DNA from: Rhizobium tropici CIAT 899
GTDB lineage: Bacteria; Pseudomonadota; Alphaproteobacteria; Rhizobiales; Rhizobiaceae
DNA: 64,000 nucleotides
Reading direction: 5' to 3'
Assembly (NCBI RefSeq): GCF_000330885.1
Contig: NC_020059.1
Coordinates: forward strand, 1,849,001-1,913,000
The notes below the pieces were generated by a model that had not been told where the DNA came from, did not search any database, and was given only the letters and a program-made list of their open reading frames with translations. Positions 4,383-45,113 of the stretch are shown piece by piece. Position 1 is the first letter of the stretch, and each line of letters opens with the position of its first letter. A program made the translations under genes and the position numbers.

Positions 4383-4982
4383 ACCTCCACCAGAGGTGGA
4401 GGTTTGAAACGCTGCGCTTGAACCGCTAGAAGCGGTATTGTTAGCGCTTAGTAGCTACGATTGAAGAGGTCGGCAAAGTCGGAAGCTTTGTCGGCCTTTT
4501 CCTGATGACGGATATATTGTCTGACGACCTGCTCATTGTAGCCCGTCGTCGATACGAAATACCCGCGCGCCCAAAAGTGATAACCTTTGTAGCGGCGCTT
4601 GCGCGCATATTTGTTCGCTACGTAAAGGGCCGTCTTACCCTTCAAGAAGCCGACAATATGCGAAACCGAGTATTTCGGCGGGATCGATATCAACATATGC
4701 ACATGGTCGGGCATCAGATGACCCTCCTCGATCTGGCAGCCTTTCTGCTGTGCCAGCCGACGTAAGAGTTCTCCCAACTCACGCCGCACGTCCCCGTAGA
4801 GTCTCTTCGTGCGGTATTTGCTGCCAAAAACAACGTGATACTTGCAGTCCCACGTCGCATGCGAGAGCGTTTGCTCATCCATATAACCTCCTTGTTCGAA
4901 GTCTGGGCCACGCCAGCGGTTCAAGCAGGAGGTCTCTTAACTACCGTGTAGAACTCGTCCAGTCCTCCACCGTAGGTGGAGG
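4383..4982. mobile_element. IS200-type element (IS200/IS605 family) with subterminal hairpins
   Basis: A lone tnpA gene is flanked by two near-identical hairpins. At 4383-4403 a 9-bp stem has loop AGA, and at 4964-4982 an 8-bp stem (CCTCCACC) has loop GTA. Hairpins of this kind are the single-stranded ends recognised by HUH Y1 transposases, and such elements leave no inverted repeats or target duplications. The true cleavage sites lie a few bases outside the hairpins and cannot be set by eye. No tnpB is present. Confidence 0.82.
4448..4882 (-). CDS. tnpA: IS200-type Y1 transposase TnpA
   Basis: This 144-residue transposase cuts and rejoins single-stranded DNA through a 5'-phosphotyrosine link. 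The HUH metal-binding motif is H60-V-H62 (MPDHVHMLI), and the nucleophile is probably Y123 (RQYIRHQE). Other conserved parts are CKYHVVFGSKYR and FWARGYFVSTTG. The ATG at 4882 follows a perfect AGGAGG site with a 4-nt spacer. The gene is complete, so the element is probably functional. Confidence 0.95.
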   Translation of the reverse strand: MDEQTLSHATWDCKYHVVFGSKYRTKRLYGDVRRELGELLRRLAQQKGCQIEEGHLMPDHVHMLISIPPKYSVSHIVGFLKGKTALYVANKYARKRRYKGYHFWARGYFVSTTGYNEQVVRQYIRHQEKADKASDFADLFNRSY

Positions 4983-40536: not shown

Positions 40537-42525
40537 TCAAGCGGCCTTGACGCGCCGTGCTTCGCGCTTGCGCAGAATGTCCGGCGGCGTCGCTTCGAGA
40601 GCAAGCGAGGTGATCGCCTCGTCGAGCGACATCGACGTTTGCGACTGGCTGCCGAGGCGGCGGATGTTGACCGAACGCTCTTCGGCTTCCTTCTTGCCGC
40701 AAACGATGATCACCGGAACCTTCGTCACCGAGTGCTCGCGGATCTTGTAGTTGATCTTCTCGTTGCGGAAGTCGGTCTCGACATCGAGGCCGGCATCGCG
40801 CAGTGCTTCCGCCACCTCTTCGCCATAGGCATCGGCTTCCGAGGTGATGGTGGCGACGACGACCTGCAGCGGCGAGACCCACAGCGGCATGTGGCCTGCG
40901 AAGTTCTCGATCAGGATGCCGAGGAAGCGTTCCATCGAACCGCAGATGGCGCGGTGGATCATGACCGGCTGCGTCTTTTCCGAGTGCTGGTCGATGTAGA
41001 AGGCACCGAAGCGCTCCGGCAGGTTGAAATCGACCTGCGTCGTACCGCACTGCCATTCACGGCCGATGGCATCCTTGAGCGTATATTCGAACTTCGGACC
41101 GTAGAAAGCGCCCTCGCCCGGCAGAATGCCGGTCTTGATGCGCCCTTCGGACTGCGCCTCGATCGTCTTCAGCACGTCCATCATCACGCTTTCGGCGCGG
41201 TCCCAGAGCTGGTCCGAACCGACGCGCTTATCGGGGCGGGTCGAGAGCTTGACGACGATCTCCTTGAAGCCGAAATCCTCATAGACCGAGAGGATGAGAT
41301 CGTTGATCTTCAGGCACTCGGCCGCCATCTGCTCGTCGGTGCAGAAGATGTGCGCATCGTCCTGCGTGAAGCCGCGCACACGCATCAGACCATGCAGCGC
41401 GCCCGAGGGCTCGTAGCGATGGACCGCACCGAATTCCGCAAGGCGGATCGGCAGTTCGCGGTAGGACTTCAAGCCATGCTTGAAGATCTGGATATGGCCC
41501 GGGCAGTTCATCGGCTTCAGCGCGAAGACGCGATCGTCGTCGGTATCGTCGCCGGCGACGGTGACCTTGAACATGTTGTCACGGTACCAGCCCCAGTGAC
41601 CCGAGGTCTCCCAAAGCGACTTGTCGAGCACCTGCGGTGCGTTGACTTCCTGATAGTCGCCCTGCAGCCGCCGGCGCATATAGGACACCAACGTCTGGAA
41701 CATGCGCCAGCCCTTGCCGTGCCAGAAGACGACGCCGGGACCTTCTTCCTGGAAATGGAACAGGTCCATTTCGCGGCCGAGACGGCGGTGATCGCGCTTT
41801 TCGGCCTCGGCAAGAATGTGCAGATAGTTGTCGAGATCCGACTGTTCGGCAAACGCCGTGCCATAGATGCGGGTTAGCATGGGATTGTTGCTGTCCCCAC
41901 GCCAATAGGCGCCGGCGACCTTCATCAGCTTGAAGGCATTGCCGATCTGACCCGTCGAAGCCATGTGCGGACCTCGGCAGAGATCGAACCAGTCACCCTG
42001 GTAATAGATCTTCAGATCCTGACCTTCCGGAATCGCATCGACCAGCTCCACCTTGTAGTTTTCGCCCTTGGCGGCAAAGACTTCCTTTGCCTTCTCGCGC
42101 GACCAGATTTCCTTGGTGAATGGCTTGTTGCGCTGAATGATCTCGCGCATCCGCTTCTCGATCACAGGCAGATCATCGGGAGTAAACGGCTCGTTCTTGG
42201 CGAAATCGTAATAGAAGCCGTTTTCGATGACCGGGCCGATCGTCACCTGCGTTCCCGGCCAAAGCTCCTGTACGGCTTCGGCGAGAACGTGGGCGGTGTC
42301 ATGACGGATCAGTTCCAGCGCACGGTCGTCCGACCGGGTAATGATTTCGATCTTACCATCGGTCACCGGATCGGAAAGGTCGCGCACGGTGCCGTCGATA
42401 GCAATGGCGACAGCCTTCTTGGCCAGCGACTTGGAAATGGATTCGGCGACATCGCGACCGGTCGTGCCGGCAGCGAAGCTGCGCACGGAATCATCGGGAA
42501 ATGTCAGGGAAATGGGTTGGGACAT
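40537..42525 (-). CDS. thrS: Threonyl-tRNA synthetase
   Basis: This 662-residue class II synthetase has an N-terminal TGS domain (residues 1-65), an editing domain with the HxxxH motif in [15 protein letters not shown], a catalytic core and an anticodon-binding domain ([13 protein letters not shown]). Catalytic-core zinc ligands include the Cys of [10 protein letters not shown], and motif 2 is visible around [20 protein letters not shown]. No T-box or operator hairpin is seen upstream. Confidence 0.98.
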
Positions 42526-42653
42526 CGATATGCTCCTTGTCCAGTCCCGCCAACGAATGCGGGTGGTTTTGAAAGATATGGACTAAGTAAATGCGTACCT
42601 AAGTCCGCGCGCCTGATAGCGGTATTTCGTATTCTAGTAAAGGAAAAGCGGCG

Positions 42654-43181
42654 CTAGGCCCGGATCATCTCGGCCAAACCGCGCACGGTGTTCCAGTTTC
42701 GCATCGTTCCGACGCCGAGCCGCTTTGTCGTCAGGGCCGGCAGCATTTTCGACTCGCTGGCTTTGAGGCCGAAATCGATCCAGAGATCGCCGTTGACAAC
42801 GGCCATGCGCTCATCTCGCCTGTATCTCGCGAGCATATCAAGAACGTCCGGTTCGAGCGGCTGTCGCATCACCCGCACGATGACCTCGCTAGCGATCCCG
42901 TCGAGGAAGGGATTGCCCTCGGCAAGTTTCAGCCATGCGTCGGCATCACGCGCGATGATATCGACATGCTTGCCGAAAGCCGCGGCAAAACCCGCTTCGA
43001 GTTGTGCCTCGATCGACGCAATCGGCTGCGGCTCGGCTTCGAAAACGAGATTGCCGGTTGCGACAAGCGTTCGGGCATTGCGAAAGCCCAAACTCTCCGC
43101 CATGGCCTTGAGATCGGCCATAACAACTCTGCGGCCCGAGTCGAGGCCAATGCTGTAGAGCAGCGCGACATAGACCGCCAA
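42654..43181 (-). CDS. DUF1697 family protein
   Basis: This 175-residue protein begins with VALLYSIGLDSGRRVVMADL and contains NARTLVATGNLVFEA, the signature of DUF1697. No enzymatic function is established for the family. It lies 3 nt upstream of yidD in the direction of transcription, which suggests cotranscription by proximity only. Confidence 0.9.
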   Translation of the reverse strand: MAVYVALLYSIGLDSGRRVVMADLKAMAESLGFRNARTLVATGNLVFEAEPQPIASIEAQLEAGFAAAFGKHVDIIARDADAWLKLAEGNPFLDGIASEVIVRVMRQPLEPDVLDMLARYRRDERMAVVNGDLWIDFGLKASESKMLPALTTKRLGVGTMRNWNTVRGLAEMIRA

Positions 43182-43184
43182 CGG

Positions 43185-43628
43185 TCAGGCAGCCTTTTGC
43201 CCAAGGCGGAAATAGCGCCAGGGCGTCCACCAATGATAGCGGCGCTCCAGCTCGCCGGGCACCGGATCGAGCCCACTTGTCCCTCCCGGGCCGCAGCGCG
43301 CCACGCGAAACAGTGTCATCCAGCCTCCGGCCCAAAGCCCATGGCGGGCAACGGACTCATAGCCATATTCCGAGCAGGTCGGGATATGGCGGCAGGAATT
43401 GCCAATGAAGCCGGAAAGCGTCAGCTGATAGAGGCGAATGAGGCCCATGCCGAAAAGCCGGTCGGGTGTTTTACGGAAGGGACCGGAATAGTTGCGGCCA
43501 ACCTGCCGTGCCCCATACCCCCCTCTGTCACTTCGTGACATCTCCCCCACAAGGGGGGAGATCGGCTTGGAGCCGGCCGCAGCTCCGCCTTCATCCTCGT
43601 CATCCTGTACGGAACAGAGATAGCACAT
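43185..43628 (-). CDS. yidD: YidD membrane protein insertion efficiency factor with in-frame repeat insertion
   Basis: This 147-residue protein helps YidC/Oxa1-type insertion of inner-membrane proteins. The conserved core is SCRHIPTCSEYGYESVARHG and LWAGGWMTLFRVARCGP. Rhizobial homologues, as I recall them, carry a Cys-containing N-terminus and RNxSGPFRKTP before the core. Here those two parts are separated by about 20 residues (about 21-40, ISPLVGEMSRSDRGGYG) encoded exactly by a palindromic repeat. The ATG at 43628 keeps both parts; starting at 43448 would drop the conserved segment. The insertion does not break the frame. Confidence 0.9.
   Translation of the reverse strand: MCYLCSVQDDEDEGGAAAGSKPISPLVGEMSRSDRGGYGARQVGRNYSGPFRKTPDRLFGMGLIRLYQLTLSGFIGNSCRHIPTCSEYGYESVARHGLWAGGWMTLFRVARCGPGGTSGLDPVPGELERRYHWWTPWRYFRLGQKAA
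43516..43562 (-). repeat. 47-bp palindromic repeat inside yidD (copy 1)
   Basis: The repeat contains two nested hairpins, GTCAC-TTC-GTGAC and ATCTCCCCC-ACAAG-GGGGGAGAT. It is identical at all 47 positions, by eye, to an inverted copy at 43688-43734. It lies within the yidD reading frame and is translated. Confidence 0.9.
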
Positions 43629-43687
43629 GAGCGGCTACCCCTCGAGACCTAGTGGCAATATCGGAAGGGTGCGGCTTTCTCCCCACA

Positions 43688-43734
43688 ATCTCCCCCCTTG
43701 TGGGGGAGATGTCACGAAGTGACAGAGGGGGGTA
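43688..43734 (+). repeat. 47-bp palindromic repeat, inverted copy 2
   Basis: This is the exact inverted copy of the repeat at 43516-43562, separated from it by 125 bp that include the yidD start codon and upstream region. It lies between yidD and the iscU-like gene. The two copies could pair as a 47-bp stem in DNA or RNA. Confidence 0.9.
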
Positions 43735-43756
43735 CGCGCTCTCGGCACAAAGATAC

Positions 43757-44209
43757 TCACGATACGGCCTCAACAACCTCGGCCCGCGCCGCCTCGACCT
43801 GCCCGATGGCATCCACGACCGCATCGAATGTCAGCATCGTCGAGGCATGACGCGCCTTGTAATCCCTGACGGGCTTCAGGTAACGCATATCCTCAAAACG
43901 GCCCTCCGGCCCCTCGCCGTCAGCCTTGAGCATGGCAAGCATGTCTTCCCTGGCCTTGCGGACTTCTTCCGCCGAAGCACCGACAACATGGCGGGCCATG
44001 ATCGACGACGATGCCTGACCGAGCGCACAGGCCTTGACGTCATGGGCAAAATCGGTCACCACATCGCCGTCCATTTTCAGCCAGATTTTTACGCGAGAAC
44101 CGCACAGTCTGGAATGGGCCTGGGCGCTGGCATCGGCGTCGGAAAGGCTGCCGATGCGGCCGATATTGCCGGCAAACTCCAGGATTTTGCTGTTGTAGAT
44201 GTCGTCCAT
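43757..44209 (-). CDS. IscU/NifU-like iron-sulfur cluster scaffold protein
   Basis: This 150-residue protein has the NifU N-terminal fold: IGRIGSLSDADASAQAHSRL, SRLCGSRVKIWLKMDGD with one ligand Cys, and DVKACALGQASSSIMARHVV with a second. A third conserved Cys position near the C-terminal segment (EGRFEDMRYLKPVRDYKARH) is not Cys here, as in several alphaproteobacterial members of this group. It may assemble or carry Fe-S clusters. The ATG at 44209 is chosen; a GTG one codon upstream is possible. Confidence 0.85.
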   Translation of the reverse strand: MDDIYNSKILEFAGNIGRIGSLSDADASAQAHSRLCGSRVKIWLKMDGDVVTDFAHDVKACALGQASSSIMARHVVGASAEEVRKAREDMLAMLKADGEGPEGRFEDMRYLKPVRDYKARHASTMLTFDAVVDAIGQVEAARAEVVEAVS

Positions 44210-44501
44210 CACAGATTTCGCTCCGATGCACCTGTTTTGCGTTTCAAAACAAAAAACACAGCGTGTCCGTTTAGGACACTTTCACAGGGACAATGCCATA
44301 CTATATGTATGTCGTTCGAAGACCATCGAAATGCAATGGTCTTCTGTAAGTTTGATGGGAAACCGTGCAGGACGGCAGCTTGTTCGCCAGCCAGAACGCC
44401 CCGGAGCCCGCCAAAGGTACACAATCTCCGTACCTCGGGGAATGCCAGTGGCGAGTCCGACAAGATGATATCCGCTTGGCGGATCAGGAGAACCACAGGT
44501 A

Positions 44502-45113
44502 ATGGACGCCATTGTAAAGAACTTTCCGCAATCCGTTGATTCCGAACGCCCGTCGCAGAAGGAAGCCGAAGACGCAGTTCGCGTTCTGCTTCGCTGGGCC
44601 GGCGATGATCCGCTGCGCGAAGGACTACTCGATACGCCTGCGCGTGTCGCCAAGGCGTACCGCGAGCTTTTCGCCGGATACGACATGAATCCCGAAGACG
44701 TGCTCGGCCGAACCTTCGAAGAAGTTTCGGGCTACGACGACATCGTCCTCGTCCGCGATATTCCGTTTTTCTCCCATTGCGAACACCATATGGTGCCGAT
44801 CATCGGCAAGGCGCATGTCGCCTATCTGCCGAATGGCCGCGTGCTTGGCCTCTCCAAGATCGCTCGCGTCGTCGAGATCTTCGGTCGTCGCCTGCAGACG
44901 CAGGAAGCCATGACGGCGCAGATCGCCAATGCCATCGACGATACGCTGCGTCCGCGCGGTGTCGCGGTCATGATCGATGCCGAGCATATGTGCATGGCCA
45001 TGCGCGGCGTGCAGAAGCAGGGGTCCTCGACGCTGACGATGACCTTCACGGGCGCCTTCAAGGCCGATCCGGCTGAGCAGGCCCGCTTCATGTCTTTGGT
45101 CCGAGGTCGCTGA
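44502..45113 (+). CDS. folE: GTP cyclohydrolase I
   Basis: This 203-residue enzyme makes 7,8-dihydroneopterin triphosphate from GTP for folate synthesis. The zinc and active-site residues lie in [20 protein letters not shown] and the later Cys of [15 protein letters not shown]. The segment [19 protein letters not shown] is typical of the type IA enzyme. It precedes hisI by 25 nt on the same strand, so the two are probably cotranscribed. Confidence 0.98.

What the first reader, a model, noticed from the sequence alone, without database searches (positions are those of the whole stretch)
43516..43734. Palindromic repeat inserted in frame inside yidD, with an identical inverted copy upstream
Two 47-bp copies, identical by eye and in opposite orientation, lie 125 bp apart. 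Copy 1 encodes about 20 residues (ISPLVGEMSRSDRGGYG region) between the Cys-containing N-terminus and the conserved RNxSGPFRKTP segment of YidD, without breaking the frame. This recalls the protein-coding palindromic elements of Rickettsia, which are rare elsewhere. The inverted copy upstream of the start codon could also pair with copy 1 in the mRNA and sequester the ribosome binding site, since the pair encloses the start.
Basis: partly seen in the sequence, partly recalled or inferred. Interest (0 to 1): 0.75.

Follow-up and report, generated by a model that had tools for sequence, protein, structure and literature searches.

The report
Palindromic repeats translated inside Rhizobium genes
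A short DNA repeat that can fold into two hairpins sits inside the Rhizobium gene yidD and appears to be read as part of its protein; the same kind of element also lies in frame inside two other conserved genes, where the DNA of the hairpin stems has stayed almost unchanged across many related species.

Summary
Two identical inverted 47-bp arms, 125 nt apart, flank the yidD start; one is read in frame as ISPLVGEMSRSDRGGY. The arm belongs to a two-armed palindromic element: 46 strong arms found in this genome form 23 inverted pairs (150 of 2222 candidates scored). By ORF analysis two more elements lie whole and in frame, in ftsY and cobN. The yidD pair occurs in 10 of 156 distinct yidD loci scanned, in three places of the gene tree, including Pararhizobium arenae; all 10 have both arms. 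In cobN and ftsY the arms are nearly invariant at synonymous sites (diversity 0.055 and 0.029, against 0.329 and 0.285 outside). Stems vary less than loops (0.021 against 0.164), and each arm keeps its own hairpin type across species. So these look like protein-coding palindromes of the Rickettsia kind, with apparent selection on the nucleic-acid hairpin. The RBS idea is weak: in one clade the Shine-Dalgarno is predicted occluded, but by a local hairpin that does not need the arms. The insert lengthens YidD by only about 5 residues against the nearest repeat-free relatives. What recognises the hairpin is unknown; no RNA or protein data were available.

The parts
43185..43628 (-). yidD, 147 aa, with the repeat-coded segment at residues 23-38 (ISPLVGEMSRSDRGGY)
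   Evidence: ORF; PF01809; alignment with 24 relatives
43516..43562 (+). arm 1, inside yidD, read on the minus strand in frame; can fold as two tandem hairpins
43688..43734 (-). arm 2, identical inverted copy between the iscU-like stop and the yidD start
43526..43540 (+). hairpin 1 of arm 1 (TGTCACTTCGTGACA); its fifth pair is A-T, C-G or G-C in different copies of the family
43541..43561 (+). hairpin 2 of arm 1 (TCTCCCCCACAAGGGGGGAGA)
43563..43687 (-). enclosed 125 nt: inner flank of the element beside arm 2, native Shine-Dalgarno (about 43638-43643), ATG 43626-43628 and the first 22 codons of yidD
   Evidence: alignment with repeat-free relatives; inner-flank scores
43757..44212 (-). iscU-like gene (NifU_N, PF01592) upstream of yidD; 22 nt lie between its stop and arm 2

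Best explanation
The repeat is one arm of a two-armed palindromic element of a Rhizobiaceae family (two arms of about 47 bp in inverted orientation, about 95 nt apart, each arm two tandem hairpins). Shown in sequence: it is in frame in the hypervariable linker of YidD between the MCxxC tail and the RNxxGPF core; whole elements are in frame in FtsY and CobN; in those two genes the arms are nearly frozen at the nucleotide level while hairpin loops, interior and flanking codons vary. Inferred: the inserts are translated and tolerated in poorly structured stretches, and the arms persist because the hairpin itself, as single-stranded DNA or RNA, is recognised by some host factor. Weakly inferred: in yidD the native start came to lie between two arms because arm 1 is an inverted copy of arm 2, made by template switching at a short similarity between yidD codons and the element's inner flank, and later correction keeps the arms alike. 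The pair is not mainly an RBS lock.
For: Family and pairing: 53 hits in G000, 46 of them with at least 43.5 bits forming 23 inverted pairs; spacing 135-147 nt in 20 of 23, exceptions yidD 172, ftsY 226, one on C4 113 (150 of 2222 candidates were scored). In-frame elements: 3 of 23. Both arms in 30 of 30 CobN and 29 of 30 FtsY best-matching loci. Synonymous diversity: CobN 0.055 against 0.329 (22 loci), FtsY 0.029 against 0.285 (29 loci). Nucleotide identity: arms 0.90-0.95, interior 0.62-0.67, flanks 0.79-0.83. Stem 0.021 against loop 0.164. Fifth pair of hairpin 1: C-G 42, A-U 27, G-C 18 of 92 distinct arms. Each of four orthologous arms keeps its own hairpin type. yidD arms identical here, against 0 of 22 other elements of the genome; over six yidD loci the arms resemble their partner more than other loci's arms (4 of 720 permutations as high). 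Both arms in 10 of 10 yidD carriers.
Against: No transcript or protein data. The 60 CobN and FtsY loci were the best matches to queries that contain the arms; 20 further loci had both arms in 8 of 11 FtsY and 1 of 9 CobN. Rows with aberrant arms were left out of the synonymous and stem-loop counts, and I chose the arm columns. The unpaired CCCCCCTC leader of the arm is conserved too (diversity 0.011-0.077), so pairing is not the whole constraint. The pair-type changes lie mostly between loci, and the number of further pair types does not exceed shuffles (186 of 500). In the mongolense clade the yidD arms have decayed. The within-locus test uses 6 of 10 carriers. In the window's own genome the inner flank by arm 1 is not resolved (end-2 p 0.060), and repeat-free relatives also resemble the element there, so the template-switch story is weak. 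In G091 the yidD frame is broken by one extra G. Columns and species are not independent, so P values are descriptive.
Confidence: 0.66

Rival explanations
1. A purely selfish element, tolerated in disordered stretches; the arms stay alike by gene conversion among copies, not by selection.
For: Dozens of near-identical arms exist in the genome, and yidD arms share private variants within a genome.
Against: Each orthologous arm keeps its own hairpin-1 type: cobN arm 1 G-C in 19 of 20 typed, cobN arm 2 A-T in 21 of 22, ftsY arm 1 C-G in 26 of 26, ftsY arm 2 C-G in 28 of 28, although this genome's copies are mixed (A-U 16, C-G 13, G-C 8). Conversion from other loci should mix them. Substitutions sit mainly in loops. 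Hairpin 2, alike in all copies, cannot tell.
Confidence: 0.22
2. One reading: the inverted pair forms a long mRNA stem that controls yidD translation.
For: Both arms present in 10 of 10 carriers and enclose the start; predicted MFE -191 to -211 kcal/mol in the four clade-a carriers, arms paired; Shine-Dalgarno less accessible in those four than in eight repeat-free relatives (0.07-0.17 against 0.15-0.73, p 0.014).
Against: The low accessibility remains (0.07-0.11) when the arms are left out of the fold, so it comes from a local hairpin. All 10 carriers against 13 non-carriers: p 0.24. Each arm can also fold on its own. Arms have decayed in the mongolense clade and no pairs join them in L183.
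Confidence: 0.12
3. Translation starts downstream (near 43448), so the arm is an untranslated leader.
For: Pfam YidD covers only residues 61-123; G091 breaks the upstream frame.
Against: The MC start and acidic tail are shared across Rhizobium, with a Shine-Dalgarno-like GAGGGG before it here. Nine of 10 carriers keep the frame through arm 1. In ftsY and cobN the element is inside the frame.
Confidence: 0.05

Closest known systems
Rickettsia palindromic elements (RPE; Ogata et al. 2000, 2002, seen only as described in passages of PMC10969869 and PMC2229807)
   Same: Palindromic repeats of about 105-146 bp fused in frame inside unrelated genes, also present between genes.
   Different: Other order of Alphaproteobacteria, other architecture (two separate tandem-hairpin arms with an interior). 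No sequence comparison was made. Conservation of stems at synonymous sites among orthologues was not mentioned in the passages I read.
Intragenic REPs (GTAG and CGTC families, PMC3733652, passages and section 15 read)
   Same: Small palindromes, often as inverted dimers, some within ORFs.
   Different: The arm consensus has neither GTAG nor CGTC. The four Y1_Tnp genes found in this genome have no arm in their loci.
CIR, CcrM-associated intergenic repeats (Chen and Shapiro 2003, seen only as described in PMC2229807, section 7 and passages)
   Same: Two stem-loop arms joined by a linker, in Alphaproteobacteria; TA at the ends (here at 27 of 44 arm ends).
   Different: GANTC is not enriched in the interior (3 of 22 elements). 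That review says CIRs have not been found inside genes and have stops in all six frames.
RIME, Rhizobium-specific intergenic mosaic elements (Osteras et al. 1995, not held; seen only as mentioned and cited in PMC2573895, PMC2873474 and PMC1273637)
   Same: Rhizobial short repeats; likely the same or a sister family (recalled, not tested).
   Different: Described as intergenic; the sequence could not be compared here.

Membership tests
Protein-coding palindromic elements (RPE-like behaviour) | Palindromic repeat in frame in several unrelated conserved genes | tested here: met
   yidD, ftsY, cobN in one genome; also in related species. Translation itself not shown.
Rickettsia palindromic elements (RPE) | Sequence relation to an RPE family | not tested
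   No RPE sequence was fetched
GTAG/CGTC REP | GTAG or CGTC tetranucleotide at one end | tested here: not met
   Arm consensus TACCCCCCTCTGTCACTTCGTGACATCTCCCCCACAAGGGGGGAGAT
GTAG REP | Associated RAYT (Y1_Tnp) gene flanked by the repeat | tested here: not met
   Four Y1_Tnp genes found in G000; no arm in any of the four loci (13416 bases) at E up to 0.1
CIR | Conserved GANTC site in the element | tested here: not met
   3 of 22 elements; 3 sites against 7.1 expected from Markov shuffles
CIR | Two independent stem-loop arms joined by a linker | tested here: met
RIME | Sequence match to RIME1 or RIME2 | not testable with these tools
   Paper not held; a search for an hprK-like gene as a guide to chvI-chvG in S. 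terangae was not followed further
Known structured RNA (Rfam) | Match to an Rfam family | tested here: not met
   No match up to E 1 in 42500-44600

The most novel reading that the evidence does not exclude
The arms inside ftsY, cobN and yidD are working nucleic-acid sites within coding sequence: hairpins recognised as single-stranded DNA or RNA by a host factor, so that natural selection holds the arm bases fixed across many Rhizobium species while the protein merely carries the resulting peptide. This would be a long-lived, domesticated, dual-purpose palindrome rather than passing selfish DNA.
Probability: 0.42. Interest if true: 0.8.

Novelty: new variant of a known kind. Interest (0 to 1): 0.62.

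Why it matters
Protein-coding palindromes are known mainly from Rickettsia and some REP-rich genomes. Here a free-living, tractable genus carries them in frame in conserved genes, ftsY among them, in dozens of the genomes examined. The old question whether such inserts are tolerated junk or are kept for a reason becomes testable: the nucleotide-level freezing of the arms predicts a hairpin-binding factor and a phenotype on synonymous recoding.

Tried and rejected
Rfam gave nothing. GANTC (CIR) enrichment rejected. Linkage to a Y1 transposase not found. Conversion among dispersed copies as the sole cause of conservation thought unlikely. AlphaFold2 of YidD is uninformative (mean pLDDT 48; residues 1-48 below 50; 25 sequences). 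Whether the linkers of repeat-free sister species (for example RRDEISPHGNSKPRHS) are decayed copies of the same insertion was considered by eye and not tested. A literature search for the arm DNA and for the peptides ISPLVGEM and SPPQGGRL listed 12 papers, all for the DNA words and, by title, unrelated; the peptides occurred in none. Searches for rhizobial palindromes, RIMEs, RPEs and in-frame insertions listed no paper whose title or shown abstract describes this case; only listings, and passages of PMC3733652, PMC10969869, PMC2229807, PMC2573895, PMC2873474, PMC1273637, PMC2881028 and PMC5082802, were seen, and most subscription papers are not in that library.

Full report
Observation. The minus-strand frame 43185-43628 runs through arm 1 and is YidD. 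Between the iscU-like gene (43757-44212, NifU_N) and yidD lies arm 2.

What it belongs to. A covariance model of the arm was built from 22 copies of this genome. In the whole genome it finds 53 matches at E up to 1e-3, with 150 of 2222 first-look candidates scored, so the census may be incomplete. The 46 that score 43.5 bits or more form exactly 23 inverted pairs, none solo; 20 of 23 pairs are spaced 135-147 nt, the exceptions being yidD (172), ftsY (226) and one on contig 4 (113). The other seven hits (28-36 bits) do not form such pairs. Each arm has two tandem hairpins; elements also share inner flanks of two types, one of each type in 18 of 20 elements tested. The arm also occurs in 7 of 8 named Rhizobiaceae genomes tried, counts being lower bounds (150 candidates scored in each): Sinorhizobium terangae 55, Shinella 24, Agrobacterium larrymoorei 11, Neorhizobium 108, Pararhizobium arenae 97, R. 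mongolense 19, R. leguminosarum Norway 9, Ensifer adhaerens 0.

yidD across relatives. Of 156 distinct yidD loci scanned with a fuzzy arm motif, 10 carry the coding copy and all 10 also carry the upstream inverted copy; in one of them (L183) both arms are near the limit of the scan. One Neorhizobium locus has a pair wholly upstream of yidD, one locus has a single weak hit, and 3 of 200 shuffled strands hit too. On a tree of iscU plus yidD core (no support values examined) the carriers fall in three regions: four, not together, in the clade with R. tropici, R. lusitanum and R. mayense; five in the R. mongolense clade; and Pararhizobium arenae. In clade a the linker before RN is 44-45 residues in in-frame carriers and 36-39 in the repeat-free members; in other Rhizobium it is mostly 26-31. 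Alignment with repeat-free relatives shows native SD, start and first codons lying between two inserted modules in clades a and b; in P. arenae the enclosed part could not be matched to its relatives. Nine of ten carriers keep the frame; in G091 one extra G breaks it. The same genome is also broken at or near the arms in ftsY and cobN, read by eye, so an assembly error is suspected, not proven. In the mongolense clade the coding arm has lost codons in frame.

More coding copies. By a codon-usage heuristic, of the 23 elements only those in ftsY and cobN (whole) and yidD (one arm) lie in coding sequence. Both arms were found in 30 of 30 CobN and 29 of 30 FtsY loci fetched, which are the best matches to queries holding the arms. 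To check that bias, 11 more FtsY and 9 more CobN loci were read: both arms at 43 bits or more in 8 of 11 FtsY (two with arm 1 disrupted, one decayed in both arms; in two of the 8, G091 and G042, the frame is broken) and in 1 of 9 CobN (G091, frame broken). One CobN keeps a remnant of arm 2 (30.7 bits) and one by eye a remnant of arm 1; 7 of 9 gave no hit at E up to 1e-3. The CobN insertion is thus present or absent among close relatives, with some in-frame remnants.

Selection on the arm. At conserved residues, synonymous diversity is 0.055 in 23 arm columns against 0.329 in 125 other columns of CobN (22 loci; L289 and L296 with aberrant arms and the other subfamily L297-L302 left out) and 0.029 in 25 against 0.285 in 112 of FtsY (29 loci; L323 left out); p 7.6e-9 and 7e-11. 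The arm columns were stretches I chose (TSPPQGGR, ISPLVGEMSAKLTEGG; PPSVPSGHLPH, ISPLVGEMSDRTEGG). Codons such as AGA, ACA, TCT and CTT are fixed or nearly fixed there; that they are rare in GC-rich Rhizobium is my expectation, not counted. Mean nucleotide identity is 0.90-0.95 in arms, 0.62-0.67 in the interior of the same elements and 0.79-0.83 in flanks (24 CobN, 29 FtsY). Within arms, stem positions have diversity 0.021 and loops 0.164 (112 and 34 positions; 20, 22, 29 and 29 sequences, aberrant CobN arms left out); the unpaired leader is conserved too, 0.011-0.077. Fifth pair of hairpin 1: C-G 42, A-U 27, G-C 18 among 92 distinct arms; the covariation score exceeds all 500 shuffles, but the alignment was fitted to the structure, the types differ mostly between loci, and the number of further pair types does not exceed shuffles (186 of 500); own genome alike. 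One CobN arm 1 (L290) has changed G-C to A-T on both sides, with two amino-acid changes. An intergenic element upstream of fdhD, found in 6 of 20 loci scanned, shows a similar contrast (arms 0.92-0.96, interior 0.58), though in two of the six the interior looks unrelated.

Why not conversion alone. Each of the four orthologous coding arms keeps its own hairpin type and length: cobN arm 1 G-C in 19 of 20 typed (4 untyped), cobN arm 2 A-T in 21 of 22 typed (2 untyped), ftsY arm 1 C-G in 26 of 26 (3 untyped), ftsY arm 2 C-G in 28 of 28 (1 untyped). Copies elsewhere in the genome are mixed. The inserted length is constant modulo 3 in 24 of 24 and 29 of 29, in part because loci were picked as protein matches.

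The yidD pair is special. Its arms are identical, which holds for none of 22 other elements. Over six of the ten yidD loci (the four most decayed left out), arms resemble their partner more than other loci's arms (4 of 720 permutations as high); in the other elements of this genome no such effect (p 0.19). In clade a the flank inside arm 2 is of end-2 type in 4 of 4; inside arm 1 it is also end-2 type in 3 of 4 but unresolved in this genome (p 0.060), and the native codons of three repeat-free relatives resemble the element there too. I read this, weakly, as an inverted copy made by template switching at that similarity.

The RBS idea. In silico the arms pair in 9 of 10 carriers (20-68 pairs across the start; none in L183). 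MFE is -191 to -211 in the clade-a carriers against -107 to -137 in 13 non-carriers. In clade a the Shine-Dalgarno is less accessible in the four carriers than in eight repeat-free relatives (p 0.014), but it is as inaccessible (0.07-0.11) when the arms are left out of the fold, so a local hairpin over the start does it; over all 10 and 13 there is no clear difference (p 0.24). A reporter test is needed. My odds for this rival were left unchanged.

Literature. Rickettsia RPEs and intragenic REPs are the nearest precedent (passages of PMC10969869; passages and section 15 of PMC3733652; passages and section 7 of PMC2229807). That last review says CIRs, the most similar alphaproteobacterial architecture, are not found inside genes. 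RIMEs are known to me only by mention and citation.

Noticed in passing
window 4502-4855 (-): One of four Y1_Tnp (IS200/IS605-type) transposase genes in this genome with equal Pfam scores; no arm lies in any of the four loci.
   Followed up: partly
L262, cobN frame, residues 200-237 of 1384: CobN also carries a different repeat-like stretch (RPSPQPSPRIDGEREHIESAVPPSPRVRGEGARRADEG), perhaps a second repeat family read in frame.
   Followed up: no
L130 (Neorhizobium SHOUNA12A): A pair of related arms lies between the iscU-like gene and yidD without entering yidD.
   Followed up: partly
L043, L342, L348 (genome G091); L343 (G042): Frame breaks at or near the arms in yidD, ftsY and cobN of one genome and in ftsY of another; homopolymer assembly errors suspected.
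   Followed up: partly
L323, L334, L336 (ftsY): Arm 1 is interrupted in frame by the same extra stretch (PLGRATGLDPSSGP) in three genomes.
   Followed up: no
L297 (cobN of G031): The element reads in other frames (ISPTRGEI and NLPPCGGDVPKGTEGG) than in its relatives, as if replaced or inverted.
   Followed up: no
window about 43605-43650: In clade-a carriers a small local hairpin occludes the yidD Shine-Dalgarno in silico, by eye with codons 3-5, independent of the arms.
   Followed up: partly
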